64,000 nt of DNA from NCBI GenBank assembly GCA_023078555.1, contig CM041199.1, positions 1,858,601 through 1,922,600 on the forward strand, read 5' to 3'. Numbering within the stretch: the first letter of the stretch is position 1; each line of letters starts with the position of its first letter. The notes under the pieces are model-generated. The model saw only the letters and a list, made by a program, of their open reading frames with translations, had not been told where the DNA came from and made no database searches. This DNA comes from Ulva prolifera. Taxonomy: Eukaryota; Chlorophyta; Ulvophyceae; Ulvales; Ulvaceae. Both the position numbers and the translations under genes were made by a program. Positions 1 to 24,400 of the stretch are shown in pieces.

Positions 1-1470
1 TGTTTGCATGCTGTGCGATTTGCCGTTGAACACCTTCAGCATGACGTCCCCGCAGTCTCAAAGCTGTATTTCACCGGGCGAATGCTCAGTGGCTTGATCA
101 CAGGCCAAGGTCACATCGTGTACTCAGTGCAGCAGGACAAGGGGCGGTTGCAGACATGCGTGAACACCACACGTGCCCGAATATCCTGACTGATAATCAC
201 TTCTTTGGGGTACCATATCCTCAGTCTGTCAGTGTCCAGTCTAGTCTGGCATGGCATGACGGATGCAGGATAGCTACTGCATATGACGTGTCTCAATCAT
301 ATGCCATGTGGAGACTCTATGCAGCAACCGCTGATGACGAATTCCACACGCTTGCTGGTGATGTCACATTCTGTGCTGCACCAGAGCAGCCTTCAGCCGC
401 AGCTTGCGCTGCTGCAGCACTCATAGGCTTGCTCAAAACAATTTCCTCTGGTTCGGCCCGGGTTGAGGAGTCTACAGTGAAACAGGTAGACAGCTGCTCA
501 GTGAATCAGAATAGATGTGGACTCAGTAGAGGCACATTCTTTGCTTTGATGCTCCTGGTTCATGCTGTGGGGAGCCCGTTGCATGTGTTCAGACTCTGCA
601 CTCCACTGCTGCAAGTGACCTGAGTATTGGCTGTCCAGTTGGTGTTTGATTGATGAGAACACGCTGAACTGATCAGCGCCTCCCCACAGTTGCATGCCTC
701 GTGCTGACAGTTATGGCATGTGACAAGTTGTCACAACTCGCACACAACGATGTGTTCCGCCACAGACTGGATAGCTCTCTGAGCTGTGCCTGAACCTGCT
801 CCATCTTTATATAGGTGTGTATGTATGACGTACAGTGTATGTACAAACAATGTCATGCCTGTGTGCGTGGTTGCATAGCCGTACCCGTGGCGACATTGAC
901 ATCTCCAGACTATCAAATCAAACGAGGCCAAGCCACATACTGTTGCATATGCATCAATACAGGCGAACGTGCTCTGTTAACTTGTGCTTACGGTCATTGC
1001 GACGAGCTTGCCCATCGCATGTAGCGGCTCATGAGCAACGCTCAGGCTGCGCGAATGACAGTGCACTGCAGTGTAGAGTATGTTTGTGGCTTCAGGGCAC
1101 GCAGTGGCCGTCCCTTCAGATACCGCGCCGCTGCATCCACGTGAGGATGATATCAAGCATCTCGAGATGTGCCTCGCACAACTACCTGTTATCGATTGAT
1201 AGGCTACATGTTTTCACGCCCGCACCTGCCACACAGGTGTCGAGCGAGTGTTCATTCATCACAGCGTGCCCGACAACATCACTTGATCGTATATCTTTCA
1301 AAGCTGGCGTATTACCTTTCATGTTGTCAACTCTTCAGCTACGCTGGATTCTATCATCGGGTTCTGTTGAGCTCCGGCCCGGAGCACCGGTTCGGCGCAG
1401 AGCCTCCTGCGAAGGCCGCCGTTGCGAGATTGTCACAATTTTTCAGTCTTCATTTATATGTACCATTTCT

Positions 1471-1602
1471 GCACACCTCCAGTATCAGCGCGGGCATGCG
1501 CGGAAGATTCCACGTGATAGAGGTGTGTATGGATTGGATACTCCGTTCGCCCGGAGCACCCGCACGTCAGGAGTTCAACCCCCCATTGTAGTGCATTTTT
1601 TT
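1471..1602 (+). ncRNA. Conserved core, copy 1 (candidate structured RNA)
   Basis: This is the first of four nearly invariant blocks of about 130 bp. CACACCTC (1472-1479) can pair perfectly with GAGGTGTG (1520-1527), and CTCCG/CGGAG (1541-1556) forms a hairpin with a six-base loop. A B-box-like GAGTTCAACCCC lies near 1570, and the block ends in a run of seven T. The RNA identity is inference: the structure does not match a tRNA, 5S rRNA or snRNA that I know. Confidence 0.35.
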
Positions 1603-3558
1603 CCTCGACAAATTTTTAGTGATTCCAATTTACCGATATCGCCGTACTTTGGATTTGCGTGGCGGGTAGCACACTTTCTGCAATACTAGACTCGGCACCG
1701 CTCTCACAGTATGAGGCATATGCATCACAACATCCTGAGGCGCTTCAGGCATGCGGGCTGCACCTGTGTCGTTATTCGGCCAGCCAGGGCGCATTCTCCT
1801 CACTCCGCCTACTGCATATTTACAAACAAATCGCAGTCGCATGATCGAGAGACACTGCTGGAGACGATCAATTTACCTGGTCGCCTGTGATGTGGCCACT
1901 CTCGCTGCATGCGGAGACTCTGAGCAAGTGGCAACAATCGCTGACGACTGCTCCTGCAAACCGAGCTGGCTTTGCCGCCTGCTGTACTGAACCAGAGCAG
2001 CCTTCAGCTGCAGATCGCATTGCTGCGGCAGTTGTAGGCCTGCTGAGAGCGATCTATCTCAGTTTCTCAGCTCCTGAGGTAGCTGCCAATACATGTACCG
2101 CGAAATGTACGTCCAGTTGGTCAGGCACACACCATACAACCTCAGCAGCCTTGCGCACGACCTCCAGTGCTTTGTCTCGTTTGTTTCATGTTTGCAGATA
2201 CAGCTATGCGTCTGCAGTGCACTGCAGTGTCGATGTTGATCAGAAGGTGTTTGCCATAAGGCTGTGGTTCAATCACCAGCTGTGGTTCAAGCAGCTGCAT
2301 CGCGCTGCGCTGCGCCACCACAGCTCCTCATGCCTTCACGTGTTCGTAACTCTCTGCACATGGCGATGCAACGACATGCGTTGCCGCAGACTCCGGCTTG
2401 CAATGATTTGTAGGTATTGCTTAATTTTCCCATGGCCTGGTAGGTGTCTCTGCTGGCTACCTGTCCCAGACATTGCCATATAGAGTCTCTGATGCCTTGC
2501 ACCTTGGTACCTTGCCAGTTCGATCACTGCGTGTCTGGCCTTTGCCCTTGATGTCAAGCAGATACTGATAAGTTGGGTATTAAAAGCACAGAAGGAGCTG
2601 CTGTTTGCCTCCTCTTGTACATTCTGCTCGCCTCTTGCATGCAGTGCTCACACTCATGCGCAGCTGGCTCCTCCCATGAACTTCTTATCTCGTCCTTTTC
2701 CCTATTCATGGCAGAACCGCCAGACTATTGCAATCTTGGTCGGTGTCGCCTGCTCGAGGTTCAGGTAGTTGTCTGAAGAGGCCCTTGGGCTGTTGTCCAT
2801 GCCGATCACTCAAAGAGGATCGTCCGGTGAACAGCCCACTTGAGACTGTGCACAGCTTTGATCACGATGTGGCTGAGCACGATCAAGCTGACAGAATACG
2901 CTGGTCTCGGTTTGCAGGAGATTCGTGTGCTGCGTGTGCCTGTGCCCGTTCACTCTGCTGTAACAGAATACGTTCGTCTTGGCAGCTAGTCTCTGAGCTG
3001 TGTGGCTCTGCAGACCTGTTCCATCATCATGTAGATGCAACCGGATCAGTGTGATCTGTTCGTTTGTGTCCACAGCAGCTGCGAGGGGCTGGCCCATGGC
3101 AAGTAGCTGCACATGAGCAAGGCTCAGCATGCATGCATGAAAATGCGTGGAGCTCGTCCGTGGCGTAGGGCACGCGGTGAATGTGTCATCTCGTCGCGAC
3201 GCTTTAGCTACCGCGCCAATGCATCCACGTAAGGATGATATGAAGAGGCTGTGAAGGCGCCCTTGTCAGACAAGCTGATATTTGTTCACAATATACGGCT
3301 GCCACAGAGATGTCGAGCGAGTTTGTTCATCGCGGAGTGCCCGACAAGATTACCTGATTGTCGATTGTATTTTCTCACTGCCTCTCACATTGTAAACTCG
3401 TCTTCTAAGCTGGATTCTGTCATCGTTCGGGTTCTATTGAGCTCCGGCGAGGAGCACCCAGGGCAGGCACGTCTTCGACGCAAAGCCTCCGAATGAAGGC
3501 CGCCGTAGTGTGCTCGTCAGACACAGTTGTTCAATTTTCATGTATAAGTACCGTGTCC

Positions 3559-3689
3559 GCACACCTCCAGTATCAGCGCGGGCATGCGCGGAAGATTCCA
3601 CGTGATAGAGGTGTGTATGGATTGGATACTCCGTTCGCCCGGAGCACCCGCACGTCAGGAGTTCAACCCCCCATTGTAGTGCATTTTTT
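3559..3689 (+). ncRNA. Conserved core, copy 2 (candidate structured RNA)
   Basis: The block matches copy 1 essentially base for base up to the T-run (six T followed by G). A TATA-like TGTATAAGTA (3541-3550) lies about 10 bases upstream; copy 3 has the same box and copy 1 a variant (TTATATGTA). Both pairing arms are intact. Confidence 0.35.
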
Positions 3690-3818
3690 GCCTCAACACA
3701 TTTTACTTTCACCGATACATTCTGAAACTTGTCGCGGACTTGCGTGGCGAGCAGCACACTTTCTGCAATGCAGACTCGACACGGCTCTCACAATGCGGGA
3801 CATATGCATCACACATTT

Positions 3819-3866
3819 GTCAATGTCCAATAGGATACAGCTCAGTAAATTCAGATTTACTTAACA
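3819..3866 (+). mobile_element. SINE-like (TTTAC)n-tail element, fragment
   Basis: A short copy of a dispersed family: 'CAATGTCCAATAGGATAC', then GCTCAGTAAAT, then a GATTTAC end. The tail is reduced to a single TTTAC. The GTAAAT..ATTTAC part can fold back on itself. Confidence 0.6.
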
Positions 3867-4450
3867 CATGATATCGAGGCGCTTCAGCCACGCGGGCTGC
3901 ATCTGTGTCATCATTCGGCCAACAAGGTCGCGTCCGCCTGACTGCATCTTCTACTGTATGCATCCCTACAAACAAGTCGCAAGCACGCGCCTTGAGACAC
4001 GCTCATAGACAAACAATGTGCAAGTTCGTCTGCGTTGGGGCTCAATCTTGTCGCATGCGCACACTCTGTGCAAGAGGCGATGATCGCTGACGGTTAATCC
4101 TGCGAGCCAAGCTATCTGTGTCGCAACCAGCAGCCTTTCGCCGCAGTTTACACTGCATTAGCCCTCATAAGCTTGCTGGAACCGATCAATTCGGTTACTA
4201 TTCTCCGGAGGAAGGTGCCCACATACGTTTCCAGAAACCTGCTGTGAATGGACGAGGCAGACTACACACAAACTCAGCGGGCTCGCACACCACATCCATC
4301 GAATAGTCTCGTTTGTTTCGTGCTTGCAGAACCAGCTGTGTCTCTGCAGTGCACTGCTGCGATGAATCGTCTCAGAAGCGGTGCCAAGCAGTCCTTCAAT
4401 ATTCAAACAACTTCACGGGACTGCTCAGCGCCGCCCCCACAGGTCCACAT

Positions 4451-4480
4451 GCCTTGGCATGCCTTGGCATGCCTTGGCAT
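4451..4480. repeat. Three tandem copies of a 10-bp unit
   Basis: GCCTTGGCAT is repeated three times without change inside array copy 2. It is absent at the matching place in the other units, so it is a local expansion. Confidence 0.9.
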
Positions 4481-4633
4481 GCGCATGAAGTTTCGCATAT
4501 GGCGATGCAATCGATGCAATTTTGTGCGTTGCCTCAGCCCACTCCGGCTTGCAGCTGTCTGTAGTGTGTATTGATGTTTTTTCCGATGGCCTGGTAGGTG
4601 TGTCTGCCAACCTTCTGTCTCCAACATTGCCAG

Positions 4634-4728
4634 GTAAAGTAAAGTAAAACAAAATATATATGCATTTACTGCTCCGTATCCTGAAGAGGGCATTGACAAC
4701 TCCGCAGTAATGGGACCACGGGTCGAGT
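4634..4728 (-). mobile_element. SINE-like (TTTAC)n-tail element inserted in array copy 2
   Basis: Read on the minus strand, the element runs from a GAGTTGTCAATG-like part through AGCAGTAAATG to a TTTAC-repeat tail. The other array units join directly from their TTGCCA block to TCTCTGG or TCTCTGATG at this place, so they act as empty sites and show that about 95 bp was gained here. I see no clear target-site duplication. Confidence 0.6.
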
Positions 4729-5785
4729 CTGGTTTCTTGCATTCCGATTTCGTGCAATTTGATGTTTTTGATGGCAGTTGTCCTTCATGTCCAGAAATTG
4801 TTGGCAGTTCTGGAATCGTAAATCGAGATGGAGAGGTGCTGTGTGCCTCCTCTTGCGCCTCTTGCACATTCTGCTCGCCTCCTCTTACATGCATCGCTTA
4901 CCCTCTTGCTGCCTTATCCCGTGAACCTGTTACCATGTCCTGTGCAGTGTACATGGCACAGTCACAGGCCCCGCTCCTTAGGATTTTTGGGGAACTTACG
5001 ATCTGTGTCGCTTGCTCGACTCCGGCAAATATCTGATGATGCCCGTCGATGGAGCCGGTCTTTGAAAAAGAATCATGCAGTGACCATTCCACTCGAGACC
5101 GTACATGGGCCTGGCCAGGAAGCGGGTAAGTAAATTCAAGTTGACAGTACACACTTGTCTTGTCACTGATTGTGCTCACCAACTGCGCAAACAATTTAGC
5201 AAGTGATACCAAGAACCGGATGGCTCTTTGAGCTGTGGCTGTCCCTGCTCCATCTTGATGTACATGCATTCGGGCAGCAGGCAACCGCGCTCTGTTCATT
5301 TGCATTCAGAACAATAGGAAGGGACTCTCCCATAGCAAGTGCACGGGGGCGATGCTGAGCCTGCATGCGTAAGTGCGCGGAGAACGTCCGTGGCTTAGGG
5401 CACGCGATGGCGGTCTCATCTCGTCGCGACGCTTTACCTACCGCGCCAATGAATCCACTTAAGAATCATATGAAGAAGCTGTACAGGCGCTCATGCCAGA
5501 AAAGCTTAAATGATCATTCAACAGAACGGCTGCCAAAGAGATGTTGAGACAGCTCGTTGTCGCTGCGCTTCCGAGGATGTTAACCTGATTGTCGATCGTA
5601 TCATCTCACTGCCGCTCACGTTGTAGAAGCTTCGCCTACGCTGGTTGTCACCGTTCGGGTTTGTTTGAGCTCAGGCGAGGTGCGCCAAGGGCAGGTACCT
5701 GTTCGGCGCAGAGCCTCCGATGAAGGCCGCCGTAGCGTGGTTGTCAGGCACAATTGCACATTCATCATGTATAAGTACCGTGTCC

Positions 5786-5916
5786 GCACACCTCCAGTAT
5801 CAGCGCGGGCATGCGCGGAAGATTCCACGAGATAGAGGTGTGTATGGATTGGATACTCCGTTCGCCCGGAGCACCCGCACGTCAGGAGTTCAACCCCCCA
5901 TTGTAGTGCATTTTTT
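5786..5916 (+). ncRNA. Conserved core, copy 3 (candidate structured RNA)
   Basis: It differs from copy 2 by one visible change (CACGTG to CACGAG) between the pairing arms. The TATA-like box, both hairpins and the six-T end are kept. Confidence 0.35.
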
Positions 5917-6621
5917 GCATCAAGAACATTTTGACAGCTTGAATGTTCTAAGTTCGTCGTATTCTGGTCATTATCGCGGACTGCCGTGGCACTCTTAGTA
6001 GCACTCTTTCTGCAATGCTAGACTCAATGGGGGCTCAATGGTCTCTGGTCAAAAGAGGAGACCATATGCATATCCTACAACACACTGAGGCCTCATGAGG
6101 CGCTTCCGATTTCTGTTTCGTCATTCGGCCAATCAGGTCGGTCGCATTCTCATGACTCCCTCTACTGCATCAAGCACATGCGGGAGAGACAGGCTCGGAG
6201 AAGAACAGTCTGCGTTTGCGTCTTTTTGGGGGCTCAATTGTTTCTTACGCGGAGACTCTGCGCACTCGGGTGGGAATGATCGCTGACGCTTGATGCTGCA
6301 AGCCAAGCTGTTGCATTCTGTACTGAGCCAGAGCAGCATCTGGCCGCAGCTTGCACTGCGACAACACTGATAGGCTTGCTGAAGTTTCTAGCTTTTGACG
6401 TCTATTCTCTTGAGGTAGGCGCCTACAATGGTTCCAGAAACCTTCTGCCGATCGATGAGGCAGACTACATACACACTCAGAACACCACATTCACTGCAGC
6501 TCCTTTTTTGTCCATGCTTGCAGAAGTAAATAGCTGTGTCTCTGTAATGCACTGCTGCGATGAAATGTCGCGTGGGTTGTCAAGCTGTGGTCTGATTGAC
6601 AGCTGCCTGTGATCGTAACCT

Positions 6622-6955
6622 ATGCATGCTCGAGGCGAGCAGAATGTACCAGACGCACCAGAGGAGGCACGCAGCACCTCCATCTGTATCCAAGATTCTA
6701 GACTTGCCAGTAATTGCTTGGCATCAAGGACAACTGCCATGATTACAAACATCAAGTTGCAGCAACACATCAAAATGCAAAAAACCAGAGACTCTACATG
6801 GCAAGGTCTGAGACAAAAAGAGGGCAAACATACCTACCAGGCCACTGGACAAATGTGCATAACACACTACAAACAGCTGCAAGTTGGAGTGGGCTGAGGC
6901 AGCGCACATGCATGCATCGACTGCATCGCCATCACAGCTGCCATATTCTGTGAAC
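6622..6955. other. Inverted segment inside the tandem array
   Basis: About 330 bp of array copy 3 match array copy 2 (roughly 4490-4900) only as the reverse complement. Examples are GAGGCGAGCAGAATGT here against the complementary ACATTCTGCTCGCCTC at 4866-4881, and 'CTACCAGGCCA' here against 'TGGCCTGGTAG' there. Copy 1 (near 2380-2700) has the copy 2 orientation, so the inversion happened in this unit. Confidence 0.75.
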
Positions 6956-7744
6956 CCATTTTCATGTCCTGTTCATTGTACGTGGCACATCCCAGGCCTC
7001 ACTCTTGAGGATTGAATAATGGGGAATTCTGCAGTGCACATTCCACTCGAGACCGTACACAGGCCCGACCAGGATGTGGCTAAGTTAATTCAGTTGAAGC
7101 TGACCGAACGAAGCTTGTAACGAATTGTGCTCACCAACTGTGCTAGGCAAGTGGGTAACGATACCAAGAAGTGGATATCTCGCTGAGCCGTGGCTGTCCC
7201 TGCTCCATATTTATGGACATGCATTCTGGCAGCAGGCAACCGCGCTCTGTTCATTTGCATTCAGAACAATAGGAAGGGACTCGCCCATAGCAAGTGCACG
7301 GGGGCGATGCTGAGCCTGCATGCGTAAGTGCGCGGAGAACGTCCGTGGCTTAGGGCACGCGATGGCGGTCTCATCTCGTCGCGGCGCTTTAGCTACCGCG
7401 CCACTGAATCCACGTAAGAATCATATCAAGAAGCTGTACAGGCGCTCGTGTCAGACAAGCTTTAATGATCACTCAACAGAACGGCTGCCAAAGAGATGTT
7501 GAAACAGCTCGTTATCGCTGCGCTTCCGAGGATGTTGACCTGATTGTCGATCGTATCATCTCACTGCCGTTCACGTTGTAGAAGCTTCGATTACGCTGGC
7601 TTCTGTCATCGTTCGGGGTTTGTTTGCGCTCAGGCGAGGAGCACCAAGGGCAGGTACCTGATCGGCGCAGAGCCTCCGATGAAGGCCGCCGTAGCGTGGT
7701 TGTCAGGCACAATTGCACATTCATCATGTATTAGTACCGTCTCC

Positions 7745-7874
7745 GCACAGTTCCAGTATCAGCGCGGGCATGCGCGGAAGATTCCACGAGATAGAGGTGT
7801 GTATGGATTGGATACTCCGTTCGCCCGGAGCACCCGCACGTCGGGAGTTCAACCCCCCATGTAGTGCGATTTTT
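7745..7874 (+). ncRNA. Conserved core, copy 4 (slightly decayed)
   Basis: This is the most diverged copy. The left arm reads CACAGTTC, so the 8-bp stem is broken. The upstream box is TGTATTAGTA, two bases are lost before the end, and the T-run is reduced to five with a changed base in front. If the block is a gene, this copy may be inactive. Confidence 0.3.
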
Positions 7875-8166: not shown

Positions 8167-8222
8167 CAAGTCTGTCTGTCTGTCTGCACTGTGCTCACAG
8201 TGCAGACAGGCAAACGGACTTG
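8167..8222. repeat. Long hairpin (inverted repeat)
   Basis: A 14-bp perfect inverted repeat (8180-8193 with 8196-8209, two-base spacer) is extended by partial pairing to outer arms CAAGTC/GACTTG. It lies just outside the end of the tandem array. It could be a MITE remnant or a stem formed in RNA; nothing nearby favours either. Confidence 0.8.
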
Positions 8223-21429: not shown

Positions 21430-24400
21430 TCACGAGATCGCCGAGACCGCGTCCGGCCGCCTCTGCCGTACCAGGGCCTCCTCGAGTGCATGCAGCCACA
21501 GCTCCCCCCTGCCGGCGCCCGCCGCAACAACGCCCCGCGCCCACGCCTCCGCCTCCTCCCGCTCTAGATCCGCGGCGCCGCCGACCCCGCCGACGGCGGC
21601 GCGTTTGGTGACCCCGCAGCCGCCCCCGTCTACGCCCGCAGCAGGTACGGCGGCAGCCGCCGACGCACGGCCACCACTCGTTGCCCCTCCGGCAGCCTGC
21701 CCTGCACAGCCACCCCCCCTCAACCTCCAGACGCAGCAGTGCGGAACGGTGCTACCTCAACATTGTGGAGCGAATCGATCGATTACGGCCGGGCGCCCTG
21801 CCTGACTCTGGAGGATCACCGGTCATGCTTCACGAGGCAAACAGTGTCACATGACTCATGTGCCATGAGGGTCTCAGACCCCGTGAGCGCAAGCGCCACG
21901 CCCGCAGCGGCCGTTCACGGAGGGTCCGCTGCTGCAGTGGGCCCCAGGCGGCACACCGTGAATGTGCCATATACTTCATGCATGCATGTGCCGCATGCAT
22001 GTCGTGTCAACGCTGCCGTGCAGGACGCAGCCCGCAGAGTGCCGCGCACGCACAGGGTGCAGCTGCGAGAGGTGAGCATGCGCCGCACCTGTGCCTGCCT
22101 GCACGGGGGACGCGCCCGCCAGCCACGCCATATCGGCCTCGTTCGCTCGAACCCACGTGTCCCACACCGCGGCCGGGCTGCGCTGCGCGTCGGCGGGGAG
22201 CGCTGGAGGCCGCGGAGAGGAGGCGCCGCCGCCGGGCGGCAGCTTGTCGTGCGAGGTCGAGTCGGCAGCCAGCGGGCTCTGCGCGCAGGGGGGCCCGCAG
22301 GCGGCCGACTCAGGGGCCTGTGCGGTCGCGGAGGACTCAGCGCTGTCTAGTGCGGCCGCGTATGCGCCGGCAGTCGTGCCCTGGGGGCTGTCGAGAAGGT
22401 GAGGGGGAGCTGAGGCCTCTGTGGACGGGGCGGGGGCGGCGGCGGAGTGGATGTGGAGGGGCTGCAGCGCGGCGGCGGCGGCGGCGTGGTCGGGGCGGCG
22501 GTAGTACCACTCGTCCGGGATGACGTCTGGGAGCGGCTCCAGCGCGCCTGCGCTCCAAGCGGGCGTTGTTGATACAATGCATATGCAGGGGGGAAGTACA
22601 TGTACACCAGGGGAGCGATGCGAGTGCACCGCCGCCACCGCTCCATGCGGCAGGGTTCGCCCAGCACACCTGAGGCATCTGCCGGCGCCGCCACGGCCCA
22701 CCCACAGCAACACAGCTGCTGCGCTGTATCCGCCTCAGCGCGCCGAAACAGCACAGGACGGCGGGCTACGCTGGGGAGAACCGCGTTCCAATGACAGCGC
22801 CTCGGACACTGGGAAGCACATGACCCGGGACGCAGCATTTTGGCCACCACCCTGATGCTCCTGGGTCGCCACCGCGGATTTGAACACATACCAAGCACGG
22901 TGCTGCAGGTGGCGGAGCCAGCCACAGGTGGAGATGCATGCCATGCACCGTGCCTGGATTCACCTGTGACGACCGGCGCAACGCCTGTGTTCGGGGCGGC
23001 CCAGACAGGTGAGACATCACTGGAAATCTAGACGGGCTGCAGAACCACGGACCCTGTTTGCGCTTCAGCCCGACAGGGTGGGCACGAGAAACACGCCCCT
23101 GACGACTCCACATGCAGGCCAGTTAGGTAGGGCGGTGTCATGTGCCATACTGCCTCGGCCACAAACATGTCCAGCTGCCTTGGAACCGACCTGATTCTGG
23201 GCCTTTGAGGGGGAAAATGGAGCATGACAGAGGGTGGCGCACCGGCGCTGCAAGTGCCCGCCCACTGCCGCAGCCGCTCGAGCTCCTCCTCCGACGCAAC
23301 CAGCGTCACCGCGACGGCCGCGGCGCCGAAGCGGCCGCAGCGGCCGAGGCGGTGCGCGTACGTCGCGCCGTCCGCCGGCAGGTCGAAGTTCACGACGGCG
23401 TTCACGTACTCGAGGTCGATGCCGCGGGAGAGGACGTCGGAGGTGACGGCGACGCGCGCCCCGAGCGCCCGCAGCGCCGCCATCGCGGCGAGCCGCGCCG
23501 GCTGCGGCAGGCGGGCCGAGACGTGTACGGTCGGCACGCCGAGCGCCGCGAGGTGCTCCGCGAGCGCCGGCGCGACCTCCGGGTCGTTGCAGAACACGAT
23601 CGCCTGCATGCATGCGCGGCCGCATCGGGGACGTGTGCCAGGCGGCTGATTGCCTGCACGCATGTGGGGCCTCGCAGGGGTCCCGGGCCGAGCGGCTGAT
23701 GACGTGGCCACCGGTGCGTGCTGGAGTCGTGCTAGGCCTCGCTCAGCGCTGTTACCGTTGTACGTATCTCTGCAGGCCGCAGGGTCTGCAACCACGCCAC
23801 TCCAGCAGCTCACTCCAGCAGACAGTCATGCTGTGGAGCTGCGGCAGCTACACGGAAGGGGCGGCGCGAACACCGGCATGCCCACATGCATCTCGTGCAT
23901 GCACGCATCATCGCACGCCGGGAATACCACGTCAGCAGCGCCGGCGCTCGCTCCGAGGAGCACCTGGTTGAAGAGGATCGTCCGCAGCAGCTGCAACAGC
24001 TTTGCAGCCTTGGCCTCGACCAGCGCCTCGACGGCGCGCCGCATCGCATCCCCTCCTGCAGCCACCGGCCCCCCCCAGGGGCCCGGAACGGCCTCCACGA
24101 TACCCTCCCCTCCGAGGCCTTTCGGGAGTGCGGGGAACGATTTCGCTGCGGCTGCGTCTGCAGCGGCGCGGAGCAGCGCGCCTGCTGTCTCCGGCTGGGG
24201 GGCCGGCGTGGGGGCTGCCGCGGCGCCGGCGCCGTGCGGCTGCACGAGGGTGTACACGTGGCGGACGGCCTGCGGCGCGGCGCGGTCCGTCTGCCGCACG
24301 TCGAAGCGGCGGGGCCGCTTCATCATCGGCAGTAGCTGCGCGAGGGCGAGGGAGTCAAACGTCGCCGACACGGCGAGCACCTGCACGCGCCGTGGCCGCC

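What the first reader, a model, noticed from the sequence alone, without database searches (positions are those of the whole stretch)
1471..7874. Near-invariant 130-bp block in each unit of an old tandem array: candidate novel non-coding RNA gene
The four units have diverged widely, yet one block (1471, 3559, 5786, 7745) is almost unchanged. It ends in five to seven T, has a B-box-like GAGTTCAACCCC about 25 bases before the T-run, and a TATA-like box TGTATAAGTA just before it in copies 2 and 3. It can form an 8-bp stem (CACACCTC with GAGGTGTG) and a CTCCG/CGGAG hairpin. Copy 4 has lost the stem, the box and part of the T-run together, as expected for one dead copy of a functional gene. The T-run plus G also resembles an Sm site (ATTTTTTG). 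Gene conversion limited to the block is the main alternative.
Basis: partly seen in the sequence, partly recalled or inferred. Interest (0 to 1): 0.78.

Follow-up and report, generated by a model that had tools for sequence, protein, structure and literature searches.

The report
Twelve-copy algal small-RNA gene family
The repeated block looks like a real small non-coding RNA gene of what is probably a green alga, present in twelve copies in two clusters and probably made by the enzyme that also makes U6 and 5S RNA; what the RNA does is not known.

Summary
The block is real and is one of 12 copies in the host genome: four in the window, eight about 1.5 Mb away on the same contig, opposite strand. 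The host is probably a green alga. Between arrays the RNA part differs at 12-17% of sites over all 32 pairs, against 29-49% just downstream. Conservation ends at a run of 4-7 T in 12 of 12. A TATA-like box lies about 30 bases before the predicted start, the spacing seen in the three U6 genes; a Pol III B-box match sits near the 3' end in 12 of 12, and the U6 genes carry one at +176/+177. I read it as a lineage-specific Pol III RNA family, transcript about 117-123 nt. No Rfam match. Gene conversion confined to about the block does operate within arrays, so within-array identity is not itself evidence of function; between-array conservation and the promoter are. There were no expression data and no relatives: transcription and function are inferred.

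The parts
1484..1602 (+). RNA gene copy W1 (predicted transcript)
   Evidence: Alignment of 12 copies; coordinates checked. 5' end inferred from TATA spacing and the start of conservation in the B array
3572..3689 (+). RNA gene copy W2
5799..5916 (+). RNA gene copy W3
7758..7874 (+). RNA gene copy W4 (3-4 differences from W1-W3, T5)
1453..1464 (+). TATA-like box of W1, variant TTTATATGTACC
3541..3552 (+). TATA-like box TGTATAAGTACC of W2
5768..5779 (+). TATA-like box TGTATAAGTACC of W3
7727..7738 (+). TATA-like box of W4, variant TGTATTAGTACC
1411..1428 (+). Upstream conserved element, W1, altered
   Evidence: 15 of 30 columns invariant over 12 copies in -80..-51
3495..3512 (+). Upstream conserved element, W2
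5722..5739 (+). Upstream conserved element, W3
7681..7698 (+). Upstream conserved element, W4
1573..1581 (+). Internal B-box match GTTCAACCC, W1
3661..3669 (+). Internal B-box match, W2
5888..5896 (+). Internal B-box match, W3
7847..7855 (+). Internal B-box match, W4
1596..1602 (+). T7 run (terminator), W1
3684..3689 (+). T6 run (terminator), W2
5911..5916 (+). T6 run (terminator), W3
7870..7874 (+). T5 run (terminator), W4

Best explanation
A lineage-specific small non-coding RNA gene family of what is probably a green alga. Each unit carries one gene. TBP/TFIIIB binds the TATA box near -30, TFIIIC binds the B-box near +90, and RNA polymerase III makes an RNA of about 117-123 nt that ends in oligo-U at the T-run. 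The 3' half can fold into one hairpin; the near-invariant 5' third is probably the protein- or RNA-binding part of a small ribonucleoprotein. Two arrays (4 and 8 copies) have diverged into two sequence types, each kept uniform by gene conversion confined to about the transcribed part. Shown: copy number, conservation pattern, promoter-like elements, T-run, excess uniformity within arrays. Inferred: conversion as its cause, polymerase, start site, oligo-U end, RNP role.
For: 12 copies and no more diverged ones found. Over all 32 W-B pairs the RNA differs at 12-17% of sites, the stretch just downstream at 29-49%; in the four pairs tested, 14-17 of 115-116 against 30-48 of 100-116, Fisher p 0.008 to 4e-6. 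T-run of 4-7 at the 3' edge in 12 of 12, with divergence directly after it (B array, positions 118-140: 18 of 23 columns variable). A TATA-like box at the same place in 12 of 12: TATAAR in 8, one-base variants in W1, W4, B2 and B5. In the B array, variable columns fall from 9 of 15 just upstream to 1 of 32 from position 2 on, one base from TATA+30. The three U6 genes found have TATA-like boxes 30 bases before U6 +1 and a B-box at +176/+177. GWTCRANNC lies at the same aligned place in 12 of 12, both W/B differences allowed by the consensus; background 0.027 per 100 nt. Upstream element GGCCGCCGTAGCGTG: its 9 exact genome matches all lie in this family (with one mismatch allowed, 32 places against 29 for the control, 11 of the 32 in the family). 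Not coding from the core's ATG: the frame ends after 11 codons in 6 of 8 B copies and shifts in the other two.
Against: No transcript data; no relatives to test. Folding energies are no better than shuffles (nine of 12 copies folded, z -1.7 to +1.8), and the W and B consensus folds differ. The favoured 3' hairpin has one compensatory pair, perhaps one event; 384 of 500 shuffles have as many such pairs, though only 8 of 500 pair as many cells. No convincing A-box (by eye). The uniform tract of W1-W3 begins at about -11, before the predicted start. W1 has an altered upstream element and TATA box. W4 aligns with B3, B4 and B7 well past the gene, so the units share more than the block. The 5S genes read show no TATA box near -30 (by eye), so the box is not general to Pol III genes here.
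Confidence: 0.68

Rival explanations
1. Gene conversion alone: the block is a recombination hotspot that is copied between units, with no function.
For: Within arrays the block is too uniform for its flanks: W1-W3 expected 15.8 differences, observed 1; W1-W2 expected 11.5, observed 0; observed is below expected in 6 of 6 W and 28 of 28 B pairs (pairs not independent). 14 columns are fixed differently in the two arrays.
Against: The arrays lie 1.5 Mb apart in opposite orientation and keep 14 fixed differences, so conversion between them seems rare; yet 93 of 117 RNA columns are invariant in all 12, against 17 of 100 downstream. The upstream element window (-80..-51) is as similar between arrays (0.84) as within W (0.79), B-B being 0.93. 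The edges fall near promoter and terminator landmarks.
Confidence: 0.12
2. A Pol II transcript: promoter and first exon or 5' part of a longer non-coding or coding gene, the T-run being incidental.
For: Lower conservation reaches back to about -500. W4 aligns with B3, B4 and B7 at about 68-70% out to some +600 to +850, and stretches there give tblastn matches between arrays, in several frames and on both strands, so a downstream exon is not excluded. The invariant TGTAGTGCA could be read as a splice donor (by eye).
Against: No frame kept from the core's ATG; over all 12 units W-B similarity falls to about 0.2-0.5 beyond +220; B-box and T-run in 12 of 12.
Confidence: 0.15
3. One reading: 8-bp 5' stem, CTCCG hairpin, Sm site, so an snRNA-like particle RNA.
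For: 8 bp perfect in W1-W3, 2 of 2000 shuffles as good (tested on W1); 6-bp helices of other sequence in B3/B8 (GCAUCC/GGAUGC) and B4 (CACAUC/GAUGUG); two pairs change on both sides.
Against: In 8 of 10 copies a foreign arm pairs better than the own one; 60.5% of cells pair; CTCCG hairpin not kept in B; Sm G absent in 5 of 12.
Confidence: 0.07
4. A known RNA (SRP RNA, telomerase RNA, vault, Y or RNase MRP RNA) too diverged for Rfam.
For: The Plant_SRP model found nothing in this genome (no control rang, so uninformative): its SRP RNA is unaccounted for.
Against: No Rfam match on the RNA even at relaxed E-values; the two chance-level ones lie beside it. About 120 nt is short for SRP, RNase P or telomerase RNA (recalled). 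No TROVE domain found.
Confidence: 0.07

Closest known systems
Yeast SNR6-type U6 genes (TATA plus extragenic B-box)
   Same: TATA near -30 and a B-box far from it; yeast arrangement seen in passages of PMC9136082. The host's own U6 genes show the same elements.
   Different: Here the B-box lies inside the RNA near its 3' end, not after the terminator; the RNA is not U6 (no U6 match at these loci).
Vault RNA and tRNA-Sec genes (external elements plus internal B-box)
   Same: Upstream elements combined with an internal B-box and a T-run (their layout recalled).
   Different: No Rfam vault match; no ARAGORN tRNA; terminal stem not kept in W.
5S rRNA arrays
   Same: Tandem genes of about 120 nt.
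   Different: Canonical 5S genes lie elsewhere in this genome, 47 matches scored (a lower bound); the block does not match the 5S model.

Membership tests
Pol III gene with TATA plus B-box | TATA-like box near -30 | tested here: met
   Same place in 12 of 12, TATAAR in 8, one-base variants in 4; same spacing as in 3 of 3 U6 genes. The start site itself is inferred.
Pol III gene with TATA plus B-box | B-box GWTCRANNC on the sense strand | tested here: met
   12 of 12
Pol III gene with TATA plus B-box | T-run terminator | tested here: met
   T4-T7 in 12 of 12
Pol III gene with TATA plus B-box | A-box at a suitable distance | tested here: inconclusive
   Looked for by eye only; no convincing match
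Pol III gene with TATA plus B-box | Pol III occupancy or inhibitor pattern | not testable with these tools
   No expression data
Sm-class snRNA | Conserved Sm site AUUUUUG followed by a 3' stem | tested here: not met
   G absent in W1, B2, B3, B5, B8; sequence diverges after the T-run
tRNA | Cloverleaf | tested here: not met
   ARAGORN 0 in the window and in L009-L013
5S rRNA | Match to RF00001 | tested here: not met
Y RNA | Rfam match and a Ro60/TROVE protein | tested here: not met
   No Rfam match; PF05731 0 matches, control rang in 1 of 14; a gene split into small exons may be missed
Vault RNA | Rfam match and major vault protein | tested here: inconclusive
   No Rfam match; PF01505 0 matches but no control rang
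SRP RNA | Rfam match | tested here: not met
   No match at the loci; the genome's own SRP RNA was not found, uninformative

The most novel reading that the evidence does not exclude
The homogenised tract is the transcript itself: the RNA, reverse-transcribed or used directly, is the template that keeps the gene copies alike. In the B array the uniform stretch begins within a base or two of the predicted start and ends at the terminator, while flanks diverge. The W tract, which begins about 13 bases earlier, fits less well, and selection could draw the same edges. If true, the family is a natural case of RNA-templated concerted evolution of a new Pol III RNA class.
Probability: 0.08. Interest if true: 0.8.

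Novelty: new member of a known kind. Interest (0 to 1): 0.45.

Why it matters
If transcribed, this is a small RNA family without a match in Rfam, with two diverged subtypes in one genome, which makes part of its constraint readable without relatives. The genome also suggests that a green alga uses the yeast-like U6 promoter plan (TATA plus distant B-box) rather than the USE plus TATA plan known from land plants (recalled). It is also a clear case where gene conversion, not selection alone, makes repeats look almost unchanged, a caution for scans of this kind.

Tried and rejected
Terminal stem ACAGCG/CGCUGU of the B type: strong in B, broken in W, no compensatory pair. tRNA-like reading of the 3' end: the 19-base pattern hits 7 prokaryote records, 3 of 7 inside ARAGORN tRNAs, so it is T-arm- or B-box-like, but no tRNA is found in the arrays. 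Coding: the core's ATG frame is not kept; (215 frames against the B array) gave matches in many frames on both strands and decides nothing. Complementarity of W1 and B4 to U6 and 5S: longest 6 nt. Alignment A1 had its four B loci on the wrong strand and was dropped. Model R1 was built but not used. Host species: size and GC suggested Ulva to me; nothing here tests that, and the 18S search did not complete. Literature: searches listed no paper on this RNA or on B-boxes of algal U6 genes. Three of these found no paper, and the lists of 45, 55 and 71 were capped (10 of 24, 12 of 415, 10 of 1,170), so this is weak; only the CC-licensed part of PMC is held.
Full report
What is there. The window is part of contig C4 (11.18 Mb) of an 88.9-Mb eukaryotic genome. 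The organism is probably a green alga: the genome has 38 exon-level matches to chlorophyll a/b-binding proteins, and one of them is closest in the PDB to chains named LHC or chlorophyll a-b binding proteins; organism names were not shown, so the group is my reading. Genome searches give 12 copies: four here (W1-W4, plus strand) and eight at C4:3373025-3393616, minus strand (B1-B8). A 25-base core with up to three mismatches gives 12 places, all exact, against 0 for the reversed control.

How conserved. In an alignment of all 12 units, 93 of 117 RNA columns are invariant, against 17 of 100 just downstream and 76 of 360 in the distal upstream part. Over all 32 W-B pairs the RNA differs at 12-17% of sites and the downstream stretch at 29-49%; for four of these pairs the Fisher test gives p 0.008 to 4e-6. 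Over the 12 units the high conservation stops at the T-run, although W4 alone still aligns with B3, B4 and B7 at 68-70% out to about +600 to +850. Upstream, the -80..-51 window has 15 of 30 columns invariant; several windows further up reach 10-11 of 30: -410 to -321, -260 and -140.

Gene conversion. If the RNA simply evolved more slowly, its within-array divergence should scale with that of the flanks. It does not: W1-W2 expected 11.5 differences and observed 0, W1-W3 15.8 and 1, W2-W3 16.1 and 1; observed is below expected in 6 of 6 W pairs and 28 of 28 B pairs. The pairs are not independent and the flanks may be near saturation, so the p-values are rough. Copies within each array are thus homogenised over about the RNA. 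That makes identity within the window poor evidence of function. The evidence for function is what homogenisation does not explain: conservation between arrays that keep 14 fixed differences, and the upstream window, as similar between arrays (0.84) as within W (0.79).

Promoter anatomy. A TATA-like box lies at the same place in 12 of 12 copies, TATAAR in 8 and one-base variants in W1, W4, B2 and B5. Thirty bases on from its first T is position 3. In the B array 9 of 15 columns just upstream and position 1 vary, then only 1 of the next 32. The three U6 genes found start 30 bases after a TATA-like box, and all three carry a B-box at +176 or +177 on the sense strand; the two on C1 look like duplicates of each other (by eye). 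In yeast the U6 gene has an upstream TATA box and a box B downstream of the terminator (passages of PMC9136082). The RNA family has GTTCAACCC (W) or GTTCGAGCC (B) at +90 to +95 in 12 of 12, the only sense-strand GWTCRANNC in the 1,170-base units of 11 of 12. The same 3' string in prokaryotes falls inside tRNA genes in 3 of 7 hits. I therefore infer Pol III with TFIIIB on the TATA box and TFIIIC on the B-box. No convincing A-box was seen by eye, and the 5S genes read show no TATA box near -30.

Structure. Folding energy is not lower than in shuffles (nine of 12 copies), and the consensus folds of W and B differ. The best-kept element is a 3' hairpin, GUGG/AUGG ... CCGC/CCAU enclosing GA(U)ACUCC...GGAGUUC: 98.1% of cells pair (8 of 500 shuffles do as well), with one compensatory pair, G-C to A-U, which B3 and B8 break. 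The B-type terminal stem has none. It is 8 bp in W1-W3 and better than shuffles there (2 of 2000), and 6-bp helices can be drawn in B3/B8 and in B4, but in 8 of 10 copies a foreign arm pairs better, and its 5' arm lies before the likely start. The CTCCG hairpin is not kept in B.

What it is not. No Rfam family reaches its threshold in the window or in the B-array stretch; relaxed searches give only two chance-level matches beside the RNA. No tRNA. Canonical 5S genes lie elsewhere. The core's ATG frame is not conserved. No TROVE domain was found. The negative results for the vault protein repeat and plant SRP RNA are uninformative, because no control rang. A 19-base core pattern has no match in viral contigs.

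Verdict. A new, probably lineage-specific Pol III small-RNA gene family with concerted evolution. The kind is known; the RNA has no match in Rfam. Its function is open; a small RNP role is the most likely guess. Everything about transcription is inferred from DNA.

Noticed in passing
L014, L015, L016 (U6 genes, minus strand): All three U6 genes found carry a TATA-like box 30 bases upstream and a B-box at +176/+177, the yeast SNR6 plan, in what is probably a green alga.
   Followed up: partly
L009-L012 (C4:3365001-3405000): At least four diverged copies of what looks like a multi-exon gene, with cysteine-rich and PAN-like stretches in translation (by eye), flank and interrupt the B array.
   Followed up: partly
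window about 3161-3250 and equivalents: A conserved stretch 410 to 321 bases upstream of each RNA copy (10-11 of 30 columns invariant per window; -260 and -140 also reach 10), nature unknown.
   Followed up: no
window 6600-6932: Part of a repeat unit is inverted relative to 2364-2666, 4499-4640 and 4728-4881.
   Followed up: no
window 8167-8222: An imperfect (86%) 56-base palindrome just after the array.
   Followed up: no
G000:C9:2003973-2019037 and C1:5343137-5347846: 5S rRNA genes in a tandem array with about 404-base spacing, and in another with about 1,149-base spacing.
   Followed up: no
window 23028-23813, minus: An open frame with a helicase C-terminal domain.
   Followed up: no
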